Made by a program: the position numbers and the translations under genes
Notes under the pieces: generated by a model
Seen by the model: the letters and a program-made list of their open reading frames with translations, nothing else
Databases searched by the model: none
Told to the model about the DNA's origin: nothing
Assembly: GCA_021154855.1 (NCBI GenBank)
Contig: JAJKHV010000171.1
Coordinates: 1-37,477 of the forward strand
Length of the DNA: 37,477 bases
Direction: 5' to 3'
Origin: Solirubrobacterales bacterium
Lineage (GTDB): Bacteria > Actinomycetota > Thermoleophilia > Solirubrobacterales > 70-9
Shown here: in pieces, positions 16,097-21,399 of the stretch
Layout of the letters: the number at the start of each line of letters is the position of its first letter
How positions within the stretch are numbered: position 1 is the first letter of the stretch

Positions 16097-17197
16097 ATGA
16101 AGCCAACCGCGAAGTTGCACGAGGCGGGCCAGAGCCTCTGGCTCGACAACATCACCCGGCCGATGCTGGCCGAAGGGGTCCTGAAGGGCTACATCGAGGA
16201 GCTCTCGGTCACCGGCCTGACCTCCAACCCGACGATCTTCGACAAGGCGATCTCCGCTGGGGATGCCTACGACGAGCAGATCGCTCAGCTCAGCAACACC
16301 GCCGTTCCCGAGCAGGGAATCGGCGCCACTCCCCCCGAGAGGATCTTCTTCGAGCTGGCGCTGGCCGATCTGCGCGACGCCACCGACCTCTTCGCCACGG
16401 TGCACGAGCGCACCGACGGCGTCGACGGCTTCGCCTCGCTCGAGGTCTCGCCCTTGATCGCCGACGACGCCGAGGCGACGATCGAGGAGGCGGCCGCGCT
16501 CCACGCCAAAGCCGAGCGCGACAACCTCTTCATCAAGATTCCCGGCACCGAGGCAGGGCGCAAGGCGATCGAGGAGTCGATCTTCGCGGGGATCCCGATC
16601 AACGTCACCCTGCTGTTCGACGACAAGCAGTACCTGGCTGCCGCCGACGCCTACATGCGGGGGATAGAACGCCGGATCGAGGCTGGCCTCAATGCCAACG
16701 TCGCTTCGGTGGCCTCGATCTTCATGAGCCGCTGGGATGTCGCCGTCTCAGGCGAAGTTCCCGACGAGCTGCACAACCGCCTCGGCCTGGCGATCGGCTT
16801 CCGCGCCTACCGCGCCTACCGAGAGCTGCTCGACTCACCGCGCATGCAGCGGCTGATGAACGAGGGCGCGCGGCCGCAGCGCCTGCTCTGGGCCAGCACC
16901 GGCACCAAGGACCCGGACGCATCCGACGTTCTCTACATCGAGGGCTTCGCCTCGCCGTTCACGATCAACACGATGCCGGAGCCGACCCTGCATGCCTTTG
17001 CCGACCACGGTGAGGTGGCGGAGCTGGTGCCGGCGGACGGCGGCGAGTCTGAGCAGCTGCTGGCGCAGTTCGCGAGCGCCGGGATCGACGTCGACGCGCT
17101 CGCGGAGAGGTTGCAGGAGGAGGGCAAGGCGAGCTTCGCCAAGTCCTGGGACGAGATGCTGAAAACGATCGAGTCGCAGGTCGGGGCGCGCCTGTGA
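16097..17197 (+). CDS. tal: Transaldolase
   Basis: Transfers a dihydroxyacetone unit between sedoheptulose-7-phosphate and glyceraldehyde-3-phosphate. Motifs of the longer actinobacterial TAL subfamily are visible: [12 protein letters not shown] near the start, [15 protein letters not shown] (about 36-50), and [18 protein letters not shown] (about 142-160), whose Lys forms the Schiff base, followed by INVTLLFD. The ATG at 16097 has AGAGAGG 5 nt before it and gives 366 residues; a GTG at 16073 overlapping the tkt stop is an alternative. It belongs to the tkt operon. A perfect inverted repeat begins 2 nt after the stop. Confidence 0.96.
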
Positions 17198-17198
17198 G

Positions 17199-17252
17199 CG
17201 ACCAAATCGACACGGTGATTTCCGCTGCTTCGAGTCCGTGTCGATTTGGTCG
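17199..17252. repeat. Perfect 17-bp inverted repeat between tal and pgi
   Basis: Arms 17199-17215 and 17236-17252 match at 17 of 17 positions with a 20-nt loop. It begins 2 nt after the tal stop and ends at the pgi ribosome site. It may attenuate or terminate transcription, or regulate pgi translation. Confidence 0.7.
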
Positions 17253-17264
17253 GGAGCCAGTGAG

Positions 17265-18914
17265 GTGAGCAAAGCGCCGCCGCTGCGCCGGCGGCCGGCC
17301 TGGCAGGCGCTCGAGAAGCATTTCGCCGAGATCGAGAGAGAGCACCTGCGCGAGCTCTTCGCGTCGGACCCGCAGCGGGGCGAGCGGCTGGTCGCCGACG
17401 GCGCCGGCCTGCACCTCGACTTCTCCAAGAACCGGATCACCGACGAGACGGTGATGCTGCTCGGTCAGCTGGCCAAAGAGTGCGGCTTCGAGCAGCGCCG
17501 CGAAGCAATGTTCGCCGGCGAGCACATCAACGTCTCCGAGGATCGCGCCGTCCTCCACGTGGCGCTGCGCATGCCGCGCGGGCGCTCGCTTATCGTCGAC
17601 GGCGTCGACGTGGTCAAGGGGGTCCACGAGACGCTCGACCGCATGGCCGCCTTCGTCGAGCGCGTCCACTCCGGCGAGTGGACCGGGCACACCGGCAAGC
17701 CGATCCGCAACGTCGTCAACGTCGGCATCGGCGGCTCCGACCTCGGCCCGGTGATGGCTTACGAGGCGCTGCGCCATTACTCGCGCCGCGCACTCTCCTT
17801 CCGCTTCGTCTCCAACGTCGACGGCACCGACTTCGCCGAGTCGACCCGCGACCTCGATCCCGAGGAGACGCTCTTCGTGATCTCCTCGAAGACTTTCACC
17901 ACGCTGGAGACGATGACCAACGCTGTTAGCGCGCGCGAGTGGCTCCTTTCATCGCTGACCGGGCTCGGCGGCGATGAATCCGCTGTCGCCAAGCACTTCG
18001 TCGCAGTCTCGACCAACGCCGAGGAGGTCTCGAAGTTCGGCATCGATACCGAGAACATGTTCGGCTTCTGGGAGTGGGTCGGGGGGCGTTACTCGATGGA
18101 CTCGGCGATCGGTCTCTCGACCATGCTGGCGATCGGACCGGCCCGCTTCGAGGAGATGCTGGCCGGCTTCCACGCCATCGACGAGCACTTCCGAGAGGCG
18201 CCGCTCGCCGAGAACCTACCGGCGTTGATGGGACTGCTCTCCGTTTGGTACGGCGACTTCTTCGGCGCCCAGACCTGCGGCGTCTTTCCCTACGACCAGT
18301 ACCTGCACCGCTTTCCCGCCTACCTGCAGCAGTTGACGATGGAGTCCAACGGCAAGCACGTCACTCTCGACGGCGCCCACGTCGACTACGACACCGGCGC
18401 GATCTTCTGGGGCGAGCCCGGGACCAACGGCCAGCACTCCTTCTACCAGCTGATCCACCAGGGCACGCGACTGATTCCCTGCGATTTCATCGGCTTCTTT
18501 CACTCGAACAACCCGCTCGGTCGCCACCACGACCTGCTGATGTCCAACGTCTTCGCCCAGAGCGAGGCGCTCGCCTTCGGCAAGACGGCGGAGGAGGTGC
18601 GCGCCGAGGGCACGCCGGAGCAGGTCGTGGCCCACCGGGTGATGGAGGGCAACCGTCCCTCCAACACGATCCTCGCCGAGCGCCTCGATCCGCACACGCT
18701 CGGCACCCTCGTCGCCCTCTACGAGCACAGCGTCTTCACCCAAGGCGCGATCTGGGGGATCGACGCCTTCGACCAGTGGGGCGTTGAGCTGGGCAAGGCC
18801 CTGGCGGTGGCGATCATCCCCGAGCTCGAGTCCGACGAGGAGCCGAAGCTGCGCCACGACAGCTCGACCAACGCGCTGATCCGCCGCTACCGCAGCGCCC
18901 GTCGCGGAGAGTAG
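17265..18914 (+). CDS. pgi: Glucose-6-phosphate isomerase
   Basis: Interconverts glucose-6-phosphate and fructose-6-phosphate, which lets the pentose phosphate pathway recycle. Motifs: [50 protein letters not shown], and the C-terminal catalytic region [15 protein letters not shown] with PCDFIGF. The GTG at 17265 is preferred because GGGAG stands 8 nt before it; the longer frame from GTG 17238 begins within the inverted repeat. This gives 549 residues, normal for the large bacterial form. It follows tal by 67 bp and precedes cydA by 9 bp. Confidence 0.96.
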
Positions 18915-18923: not shown

Positions 18924-20312
18924 ATGCTTTGGCTCGACCCGCTCCCATTGGCGGCGTCGGCCTCGAATCTGCTCGCCGCGCGCGAGCAGATGGCCTTCAC
19001 GCTCGGCTTCCACATCGTCCTCGCTTCGCTCGGAGTCGCCCTCCCGGCGACGATCCTGGTCGCCAACTACATCGGCCTCAAGCGCGACGATGCAGACGCG
19101 ATCGAGCTGGCGCAGCGCTGGTCGAAGGCGATGGCCGTCACCTTCGCCGTCGGCGCCGTCACCGGCACCGTGCTCAGCTTCGAGTTCGGCCTGCTCTGGC
19201 CGCGCTTCATGGATCGCTTCGGCGCCGCCTTCGGCATCGCCTTCGCGATCGAGGGACTCTTCTTCTTCACCGAGGCGATCTTCCTGGCGATCTACATCTA
19301 CGGCTGGAAGCGGCTGAGCGGTTGGGCGCACTTCTGGGCGGGGGTGCCGATGGTGGTCACCGGCATCGGCGGTGCCTTCTCCGTCGTCGCCGCCAACTCT
19401 TGGATGAACCAGCCGCAGGGGTTCACCCTCGACGCCGCCGGCAAGGTCGTCGACACCAACCCGATCGAGATCCTCTTCAACCGGGCGACCGGCTACGAGG
19501 TCCCGCACATGATCCTCGCCGCCTACATGGTGGTCGGCTTCCTCGTCGCCTCGATCTACGCCGCGGGCATGCTGAAGGGACGGCGCGACCGCCTGCACCG
19601 GCTCGGCCTGCTGATCCCGCTGACGATCGCCTTCATCGCCACGCCGGTCCAGCTCTTCGTCGGCGACACCGCCGCCCGGGAAGTGGCCGACGACCAGCCC
19701 GCCAAGTTCGCCGGCTTTGAGTGCATTCAGAAGACCGGCACCCACCAGACCGAGTACGTCGGTGGCATCTGCACCTCGAGCGGGGTCAAGGGGGCGATCC
19801 CGGTCCCCGATCTCGACTCCTTCCTGGTCGGCTTCAACGCCGACACCAAGGTGACCGGCCTCGCCGACATCCCCGAAGACCAGCGTCCCCCCGCGAACAC
19901 GATGCTCCACCTCGCCTTCGATGCGATGGTCGGGATCGGCACGGCCCTGCTCGCGCTTGGCGTCTGGCTCGCCTTCGCCTGGTGGCGGCGGCGCGACATC
20001 CCGAAGACGGCATGGTTCCTGCGCGCCGTGGCGGTCTCGGGGGCGGGGGCAGTGCTGGCGCTCTGGTGTGGCTGGATCGTCACCGAGGTCGGTCGACAGC
20101 CCTGGATCGTGCAGGGCTACATGCGCACCTCCGAAGCGGTCACCGAGGCGAAGGGAATCTGGTTCAGCTTCGCCCTGGTGCTGGCGCTTTACGCAGCGAT
20201 CGGCACGATCGCGATCCTCGTCCTGCGCCGCATGTCGCGCCGCTGGCGCGAGGGCAGCGCGGAACCCCAAGGCACCCCATACGCCCCGCCGGCAGCCGAG
20301 GTGCCCCGATGA
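18924..20312 (+). CDS. cydA: Cytochrome bd quinol oxidase subunit I
   Basis: Haem-bearing, quinol-oxidising subunit of the bd-type terminal oxidase in the cytoplasmic membrane. About nine helices are visible in 462 residues. Haem ligands can be placed: His30 in LGFHIVLASLG, His195 in GYEVPHMILAA and Met335 in FDAMVGIGT. The quinone-site motif GRQPW (390-394) and REQMAF near the N-terminus are also present. The loop between about 250 and 325 is short, so this is the short-Q-loop type. Its TGA overlaps the ATG of the 24-codon ORF that leads into cydB. Confidence 0.96.
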   Translation: MLWLDPLPLAASASNLLAAREQMAFTLGFHIVLASLGVALPATILVANYIGLKRDDADAIELAQRWSKAMAVTFAVGAVTGTVLSFEFGLLWPRFMDRFGAAFGIAFAIEGLFFFTEAIFLAIYIYGWKRLSGWAHFWAGVPMVVTGIGGAFSVVAANSWMNQPQGFTLDAAGKVVDTNPIEILFNRATGYEVPHMILAAYMVVGFLVASIYAAGMLKGRRDRLHRLGLLIPLTIAFIATPVQLFVGDTAAREVADDQPAKFAGFECIQKTGTHQTEYVGGICTSSGVKGAIPVPDLDSFLVGFNADTKVTGLADIPEDQRPPANTMLHLAFDAMVGIGTALLALGVWLAFAWWRRRDIPKTAWFLRAVAVSGAGAVLALWCGWIVTEVGRQPWIVQGYMRTSEAVTEAKGIWFSFALVLALYAAIGTIAILVLRRMSRRWREGSAEPQGTPYAPPAAEVPR

Positions 20313-20383
20313 TCAGGCCGACGGACCTGAAAACCCACTCGGGCTCCGGTTTGATGCCCGTCGACGGGGGGTTTGGGCGATGA
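20309..20383 (+). CDS. 24-residue micro-ORF exactly bridging cydA and cydB
   Basis: The ATG at 20309 overlaps the cydA stop (ATGA), and its own TGA (20381-20383) overlaps the cydB ATG (ATGA), so it fills the 67-bp gap without slack. The peptide starts MIRPTDLK and ends DGGFGR. It is hydrophilic and Gly-rich, with no membrane helix, so it is not CydX/CbdX-like. It may act as a translational relay keeping cydA and cydB coupled, or be a leader. It could also be chance, since no ribosome site precedes it beyond cydA coupling. Confidence 0.45.
   Translation: MIRPTDLKTHSGSGLMPVDGGFGR
20329..20375. repeat. Imperfect inverted repeat between cydA and cydB
   Basis: AAACCC and CGGGC on the left face GCCCG and GGGTTT on the right, with uneven spacers. 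In RNA the stem would sequester the GGGGGG ribosome site of cydB (20365-20371). Confidence 0.35.
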
Positions 20384-21399
20384 CGCGCGCCGACGTCTGT
20401 GCAGTGATCCTCTGGGTCGGGGCGACGTTCTATGCGCTCTTCGGCGGGGCTGACTTCGGCGGCGGCTTTTGGGACCTGGTCGCGGGCGGCGCAGAACGGG
20501 GCGAGCGACCGCGGGCGCTGATCCAGCGCTCGTTGACCCCGGTCTGGGAGGCCAACCACGTCTGGCTGATCTTCATCCTCGTCGTCCTCTGGACAGCCTT
20601 CCCGCCCGCCTTCAGCGCGGTGATGACGACCCTCTACGTTCCGATCGCTCTGGCAGCGCTTGGGATCGTTCTGCGCGGCTCCGGCTTCGCCTTCCGCAAG
20701 TCGATTGAGGGACTCTCGGGCCGCCGCGCGGCCGGGGCCACCTTCGCGATCTCCTCGCTGCTGACGCCGTTCTTCATGGGCGCCACGGTTGGCGCGATTG
20801 CCGCCGGCAACGTGCCCGGCGACGGCAACGGCGCTCCCTTCTCCAGCTGGCTGGCGCCGCTGCCGCTGCTGACCGGGGCGATGTTCGTCGCCAGCGGCGC
20901 CTACCTCGCAGCCGTCTTCCTGATTGGCGACGCCCGCCGCGCCGGCGACGGCGAGCTGCAGCGCTACTTCGCCCGGCGGGCCCTCGCCGCGGCTGCTGTC
21001 GCCGGCCTTGCTGCCGCCTTCGGCCTGATCGAGCTGCACTCCGAAGCCCGCTACATCTTCGACCGCCTCACGGACGAGGGCCTGCCGCTGCTCATCCTCT
21101 CGGTCATCTGCGGGATCGGTGTCCTCGCCCTTCTGCTCTCGGCCGCTCGCCGTCCCGCCGCGGCTTCGCGACACGTCCTGCGGCCGCTGGCCGCCGGGGC
21201 CGTGATCGCGGTCATCTGGGGCTGGGGCGTCGCCCAGTTCCCCTATCTGATCCCGACCTCGCTGAAGATCGCCCAGTCGGCGGCGCCTCCCGACACCCTC
21301 TCCAGCGTGATCGTCGTCTTCGTCGCCGCGGCGATCCTCGTCCTGCCGGCCCTGGCCCTGCTCTACTGGCTCTCACAGAGGGAACTCTTGGGTGAGTGA
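20380..21399 (+). CDS. cydB: Cytochrome bd quinol oxidase subunit II
   Basis: Partner subunit of CydA; both form the membrane-bound oxidase that reduces O2 to water. The 339-residue protein has about eight helices and family motifs FGGADFGGGFWDL (about 19-31), PVWEANHVWLIF (about 55-66) and PPAFS near 78, and a C-terminal WGVAQFPYLIP. The ATG at 20380 was chosen because it begins just before the first helix and follows GGGGGG by 8 nt; the longer open frame upstream is a shadow of cydA. No cydX or cydDC is visible. A HAD phosphatase gene overlaps its end. Confidence 0.95.
   Translation: MTRADVCAVILWVGATFYALFGGADFGGGFWDLVAGGAERGERPRALIQRSLTPVWEANHVWLIFILVVLWTAFPPAFSAVMTTLYVPIALAALGIVLRGSGFAFRKSIEGLSGRRAAGATFAISSLLTPFFMGATVGAIAAGNVPGDGNGAPFSSWLAPLPLLTGAMFVASGAYLAAVFLIGDARRAGDGELQRYFARRALAAAAVAGLAAAFGLIELHSEARYIFDRLTDEGLPLLILSVICGIGVLALLLSAARRPAAASRHVLRPLAAGAVIAVIWGWGVAQFPYLIPTSLKIAQSAAPPDTLSSVIVVFVAAAILVLPALALLYWLSQRELLGE

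What the first reader, a model, noticed from the sequence alone, without database searches (positions are those of the whole stretch)
20309..20383. Micro-ORF with ATGA overlaps at both ends joins cydA to cydB
The 24-codon frame starts on the cydA stop (ATGA at 20309-20312) and stops on the cydB start (ATGA at 20380-20383), filling the gap exactly. Terminating ribosomes could pass directly from cydA to the micro-ORF and on to cydB, fixing subunit stoichiometry; it is not a CydX homologue, since the peptide has no membrane helix. An inverted repeat in the same gap may hide the cydB ribosome site unless the micro-ORF is translated.
Basis: partly seen in the sequence, partly recalled or inferred. 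Interest (0 to 1): 0.6.

Follow-up and report, generated by a model that had tools for sequence, protein, structure and literature searches.

The report
Repeat insert relays ribosomes cydA-cydB
A short palindromic repeat has landed where two oxidase genes used to overlap by four bases, yet it carries a tiny reading frame that could still hand ribosomes from the first gene to the second; the same arrangement recurs at many operon junctions in related bacteria, built from unrelated repeat families, much like the MIRU repeats of mycobacteria.

Summary
Alone it is weak evidence (about 0.17 by chance, given an insert). In most relatives cydA and cydB overlap directly by RTGA, so the window carries a 71-nt insert. 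Its core (20317-20365) is a diverged copy of a palindromic interspersed repeat (family P here), with other copies in this genome and many in a sister genus. All 7 insert-bearing junctions in this cydAB clade (about 34 junctions; 5-7 events) keep an open, in-register RTGA...RTGA micro-ORF, though lengths (8-71) and sequences differ (chance product 8e-4 to 7e-5). The G215 cyd insert belongs to another repeat family. The window holds a second relay, tal-pgi (17194-17268, also 71 nt), made by a third family: about 17 copies in this genome, 14 of them relays. Most likely such inserts survive because the micro-ORF relays terminating ribosomes and keeps translational coupling. The nearest known thing is the mycobacterial MIRU. 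The peptide shows no sign of selection; the proposed hairpin block of the cydB ribosome site is not supported. Relay translation is inferred, not shown.

The parts
18924..20312 (+). cydA, cytochrome bd oxidase subunit I
   Evidence: PF01654, E 4.8e-122
20298..20303 (+). GAGGTG, Shine-Dalgarno-like site before the micro-ORF start, inside cydA
   Evidence: anti-SD duplex -7.2 kcal/mol; sequence
20309..20383 (+). relay micro-ORF, 24 codons; ATGA overlap with the cydA stop and with the cydB start
   Evidence: register and openness shared by all 7 insert-bearing cydA-cydB junctions of the clade
20307..20312 (+). left copy of direct repeat CGATGA (possible target-site duplication)
20378..20383 (+). 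right copy of direct repeat CGATGA
20317..20365 (.). diverged copy of palindromic interspersed repeat family P (49-nt core)
   Evidence: covariance model built without the window: 29.3/28.3 bits, E 1.8e-6/3.5e-6, next best in window 14.5 bits; own-genome copies align better than at least 2999 of 3000 shuffles
20366..20371 (+). GGGGGG, Shine-Dalgarno-like site before the cydB start, at the edge of the repeat
   Evidence: anti-SD duplex -10.1 kcal/mol
20380..21399 (+). cydB, cytochrome bd oxidase subunit II
   Evidence: PF02322, E 1.5e-64
16097..17197 (+). tal, transaldolase, upstream partner of the second relay (the open frame extends to 16073)
   Evidence: PF00923, E 2.5e-68
17194..17268 (+). 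second relay micro-ORF, 24 codons, GTGA at the tal stop and GTGA at the pgi start, also 71 nt start to start
17194..17258 (+). interspersed hairpin element, family R1 (65-nt core)
   Evidence: 83.5 bits; about 17 copies in this genome; covarying 18-bp stem
17265..18914 (+). pgi, phosphoglucose isomerase
   Evidence: PF00342, E 8.4e-221

Best explanation
The ancestral cydA and cydB overlapped by four bases (RTGA), the usual arrangement for coupling by termination and reinitiation. In this lineage a palindromic interspersed repeat inserted into the overlap and left an RTGA at each end of a 71-nt insert. The insert is tolerated because its frame stays open and in register: a ribosome that ends cydA restarts at the overlapping ATG, reads 24 codons of repeat, ends on the cydB ATGA and restarts on cydB. 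The peptide is a by-product; the frame is what is kept. The same solution is used at tal-pgi in this window, and at many junctions in related genomes, by several unrelated repeat families. Shown: the ancestral overlap, the repeat identity of the insert core, the recurrent in-register frames. Inferred: that ribosomes take this path and that this preserves cydB output.
For: Direct RTGA overlap in the large majority of relatives. Insert core matches repeat family P. Seven of seven insert-bearing junctions of the clade are in register and open, with start-to-start distances 71, 59, 56, 35, 20, 17 and 8, spread over the cydAB tree in 5-7 places. G215's cyd insert belongs to a separate interspersed family whose six inspected copies all have distance 56 and RTGA/TTGA at both ends. 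R1 copies: 14 of 17 in this genome are relays, including a tandem pair that forms a double relay. G047's family: 25 of 31 copies that follow an upstream open frame are relays, against 9 of 30 background gene ends in G027 (Fisher 7e-5; R1 14/14, 7e-6). tal-pgi overlaps by 4 in most close relatives. Coupling needs overlap or very short gaps (PMC10666635).
Against: No expression, ribosome profiling or reporter data. cydB has its own Shine-Dalgarno-like run (GGGGGG), so it might be started independently. The window insert is a weak, decayed member of family P (11-12 bits with a sequence-only profile). P copies elsewhere are mostly intergenic or inside genes, not relays. Genome-wide enrichment of relays in G027 is modest (6/41 against 10/200, p 0.036). 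Outside the clade one short-gap junction (L142) is out of register and one (L145) is in frame with cydB.
Confidence: 0.72

Rival explanations
1. Neutral insert: the repeat landed between the genes, cydB is now started from its own Shine-Dalgarno site inside the insert, and the micro-ORF is incidental.
For: GGGGGG shortly before the cydB start pairs with the anti-SD at -10.1 kcal/mol; a frame of this kind arises with probability about 0.17 in a single insert; G215 and G047 inserts also carry good Shine-Dalgarno sites before cydB.
Against: All 7 inserts of the clade are in register; relay frames are strongly over-represented among copies of two repeat families, and the insert lengths of these copies vary while the relay register is kept.
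Confidence: 0.2
2. The insert is an RNA hairpin or attenuator that controls cydB, and translation of the micro-ORF opens it.
For: An imperfect inverted repeat is present, and family P is a conserved palindrome.
Against: The fold of the window junction is no better than shuffles (z +0.60 and -0.34); no Rfam match; the palindrome is degraded here (four mismatched pairs flagged in the + strand match).
Confidence: 0.06
3. The micro-ORF encodes a functional small subunit or regulator of the oxidase (a CydX/CydS analogue).
For: Position between cydA and cydB; small oxidase subunits exist in other bacteria (own knowledge).
Against: Peptides at the 7 junctions are unrelated and 3-24 residues long; no Pfam match; no hydrophobic stretch; most relatives lack it; the core of the sequence derives from a repeat found elsewhere.
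Confidence: 0.02

Closest known systems
MIRU, mycobacterial interspersed repetitive units (Supply et al. 1997, as described in PMC12548453 and PMC2734929)
   Same: Short interspersed repeats (40-100 bp) that insert at start codons so that an ORF inside the repeat is coupled to the downstream gene at -4 nt; tandem copies occur. R1 shows all of this; the G047 and G215 families show the insertion site and the coupled ORF.
   Different: A different class (Thermoleophilia), several unrelated repeat families, a strong covarying hairpin in R1; sequence relation to MIRU not tested. The cyd insert itself comes from a generic palindrome family (P) that is mostly not at relay junctions.
Termination-reinitiation at ATGA overlaps (PMC6728339, PMC10666635)
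   Same: RTGA stop-start overlaps at both ends of the micro-ORF; genes for subunits of one complex.
   Different: Two hand-overs in series through a reading frame with no evident product function, instead of one.
REP-type and other interspersed palindromic repeats, including those found inside genes (own knowledge)
   Same: Family P: 49-nt palindrome, many copies in intergenic and genic sites.
   Different: Here one copy sits in a former gene overlap and is read as a relay.
Short upstream ORFs that deliver a ribosome to a downstream gene (reviewed in PMC12548453)
   Same: The short ORF serves delivery, not a peptide.
   Different: It lies between two genes of an operon and is itself entered by reinitiation.

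Membership tests
MIRU-like relay repeats (works-like class) | Insert at a stop-start overlap with an ORF coupled at -4 nt to the downstream gene | tested here: met
   cyd insert: ATGA at both ends, open frame; ancestral -4 overlap in relatives
MIRU-like relay repeats (works-like class) | The element family recurs at many relay junctions in the genome | tested here: not met
   For the cyd insert: only a decayed P copy, and inspected P copies are mostly not relays. Met for the tal-pgi element R1, 14 of 17 copies
MIRU of mycobacteria (as a sequence family) | Sequence homology to mycobacterial MIRU | not tested
   no MIRU sequence was compared
Repeat family P (this work) | Match to a 49-nt palindrome model built without the window | tested here: met
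   29.3 bits, E 1.8e-6, next best in the window 14.5 bits; own-genome copies against shuffles
Repeat family R1 (this work) | Match to the 65-nt R1 model | tested here: not met
   cyd insert gives no hit with filters off at E up to 10; tal-pgi insert scores 83.5 bits
Termination-reinitiation coupled gene pair | Stop and start codons overlap | tested here: met
   both junctions
Termination-reinitiation coupled gene pair | Downstream translation depends on upstream translation | not testable with these tools
   needs reporters
CydX/CydS small subunit | Conserved peptide with a membrane helix | tested here: not met
   no hydrophobic stretch in the 24-residue sequence, no Pfam match, peptides unrelated among relatives

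The most novel reading that the evidence does not exclude
In Solirubrobacterales several unrelated families of short repeats, some dispersed in tens of copies per genome, have specialised independently in RTGA gene overlaps: each unit carries a relay ORF that lets the repeat spread through operons without breaking translational coupling, a convergent, MIRU-type 'ribosome relay' class of selfish DNA. The cydA-cydB insert of the window is an older, decayed case made from a generic palindrome.
Probability: 0.5. Interest if true: 0.75.

Novelty: new variant of a known kind. Interest (0 to 1): 0.6.

Why it matters
It turns an apparently odd micro-ORF into a natural experiment on translational coupling: inserts of many lengths and sequences sit in formerly overlapping genes, and those seen in this clade keep the relay register. 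That gives a sequence-only test of how strictly coupling is selected, and it suggests that MIRU-like relay repeats are not peculiar to mycobacteria. It also warns that such frames can be annotated as small proteins although nothing suggests that the peptide matters.

Tried and rejected
Rfam search of the junction: nothing. RNA folding of the junction: no signal. Direct DNA search for copies of the cyd insert in the own genome: only 17-18-nt chance matches; family-wide it gave weak hits, several of which turned out to be one palindrome family. Idea that all inserts are tandem duplications of the junction: clear only at an 8-nt overlap in G208 (46-nt duplication, L103); rejected as a general account once the repeat families appeared, though it may still hold for the short inserts (8-35 nt) of G023, G037, G038 and G041. 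Idea that the cyd insert is a decayed R1 element: not supported. Idea that the micro-peptide is selected: no third-position excess in the best-sampled relay family. The register column printed is 2 by construction and is not used as evidence; what counts there is the RTGA end and the long open frame that follows.

Full report
What is there. The window is contig C171 of an incomplete genome (2.23 Mb in 198 contigs, about 74% complete); its nearest titled relatives are Solirubrobacterales and Thermoleophilia metagenome assemblies. The stated frame exists exactly: ATGA at 20309-20312 joins the cydA stop to the micro-ORF start, ATGA at 20380-20383 joins the micro-ORF stop to the cydB start, and the 24 codons between are open. 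cydA and cydB are confirmed by Pfam.

Is it more than chance? Taken alone it is not remarkable. If an insert with RTGA at both ends is given, the register is right one time in three and a shuffled insert is open about half the time, so about 0.17. The evidence comes from relatives. I extracted cydA-cydB junctions from the family, order and class. In the clade of cydAB that includes the window (cydA identity about 62% or more, about 34 distinct junctions) nearly all junctions are direct 4-nt RTGA overlaps. Seven have an insert: window 71, G047 59, G215 56, G037 35, G038 20, G041 17, G023 8 (start-to-start distances). All seven start on an RTGA at the cydA stop and run open to an RTGA at the cydB start. 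On the cydAB tree they fall in five to seven separate places. The chance product is 7.4e-5 for seven events and 8e-4 for five. If inserts of a multiple of three were hidden or excluded for other reasons, the register factor per event would be one half instead of one third. One junction of the clade (L076) lacks a cydA stop at the overlap altogether. In more distant cydAB groups ordinary gaps of 2-9 nt without RTGA are common, one RTGA junction (L142) is out of register and one (L145) is in frame with cydB.

A second relay in the window. A genome-wide look with a simple gene finder of my own (trained on 800 kb of G027) pointed to a second relay in the same window: tal to pgi, GTGA at 17194-17197 and GTGA at 17265-17268, 24 codons, again 71 nt start to start. 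That insert is an interspersed repeat: blastn finds seven further copies in this genome, and a covariance model (65-nt core, 18-bp stem with compensatory changes) finds about 17 in all. Fourteen of the 17 start with RTGA at the end of an upstream open frame, or within about 12 nt of one, and run open to an RTGA or TTGA that starts a downstream frame; two copies in tandem on C101 make a double relay. Copies occur in seven other genomes of the family, mostly as relays too, and two junctions appear, from the similarity of the downstream genes, to carry the element in both this genome and another genus. In close relatives tal and pgi overlap by four bases. The exception in the same genus is G047, whose 71-nt insert there belongs to a different family: its peptide begins MSAER, with over 30 matches in G047 and some in other genomes. 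Of 31 such copies that follow an upstream open frame, 25 are relays, against 9 of 30 comparable background gene ends in G027. The G215 insert at cydA-cydB itself is a member of a third family; all six inspected copies are 56-nt inserts with RTGA or TTGA at the start and GTGA at the end.

What the cyd insert is. It is not a member of these relay families. Weak DNA hits in sister genomes led to a palindromic repeat, called P here. A covariance model built from eight copies without the window finds the insert core at 20317-20365 with 28-29 bits, E about 2e-6 to 4e-6, far above everything else in the window. Because some model members were first found through the cyd query, I repeated the test with 24 copies not found that way: the same site is still the best in the window, although weakly (E 0.008-0.014), and all six copies tried, four of them from this genome, align to the insert core better than at least 2999 of 3000 shuffles. 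P copies elsewhere lie between genes or inside them and are mostly not relays.

How it most likely works. Coupling by termination and reinitiation needs an overlap or a very short gap; gaps of about 20 nt nearly abolish it in both species tested (PMC10666635). An insert in a coupled overlap should therefore cost the downstream gene its ribosomes, unless it supplies a new stop-start overlap at each end and an open frame between. That is what all observed inserts in this clade have. I infer that ribosomes ending cydA restart on the micro-ORF and, 24 codons later, on cydB. What is kept is the frame, not the peptide: the peptides of different junctions are unrelated, and in the best-sampled relay family variation is not concentrated at third codon positions. 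The idea that a hairpin hides the cydB ribosome site finds no support in folding. A caution: cydB has a Shine-Dalgarno-like GGGGGG before it, so direct initiation may also contribute.

Relation to known things. The review PMC12548453 describes mycobacterial MIRUs as mobile repeats that insert at start codons so that an ORF inside the repeat is coupled at -4 nt to the gene. The relay families found here work like that and differ in host group, in sequence (not compared) and in the number of unrelated families. I found no report of such elements in Thermoleophilia in the searched library, which does not hold most subscription papers.

Verdict. Observation confirmed; the hand-over interpretation is supported by comparison but untested by experiment; the hairpin and peptide ideas are not supported. 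The case is a new variant of a known kind, and the wider pattern, several repeat families that keep a ribosome relay at gene overlaps, is the interesting part.

Noticed in passing
window 17194-17268: A second relay micro-ORF (tal-pgi), made by the hairpin repeat family R1 with about 17 copies in this genome, 14 of them relays.
   Followed up: yes
L248 and L250 (G000 C101:9091-9226, minus strand): Two tandem R1 units of 71 nt form two relay ORFs in series ahead of a downstream gene, a MIRU-VNTR-like arrangement.
   Followed up: partly
L285, L300-L314, L335-L354 (G047 and g10 genomes): A second relay repeat family with peptide MSAER..., over 30 matches in G047, 25 of 31 testable copies relays.
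   Followed up: partly
L075, L286, L296, L301, L305, L309, L313 (G215): A third relay repeat family, always 56 nt start to start; one copy is the cydA-cydB insert of G215.
   Followed up: partly
L206:16141-16189 (G000 C9), L357, L377, L378: Copies of palindrome family P lie inside predicted coding genes (the L206 one within a 666-nt gene), which recalls palindromic elements inserted within genes in other bacteria.
   Followed up: no
L103 (G208): At a cydA-cydB junction with an 8-nt overlap (ATGGCTGA) a 46-nt tandem duplication gives a 17-codon relay frame with the same 8-nt overlap at both ends.
   Followed up: no
L076 (G109): cydA has no stop at the junction; its frame runs about 180 nt into cydB in another register, either a real long overlap or an assembly error.
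   Followed up: no
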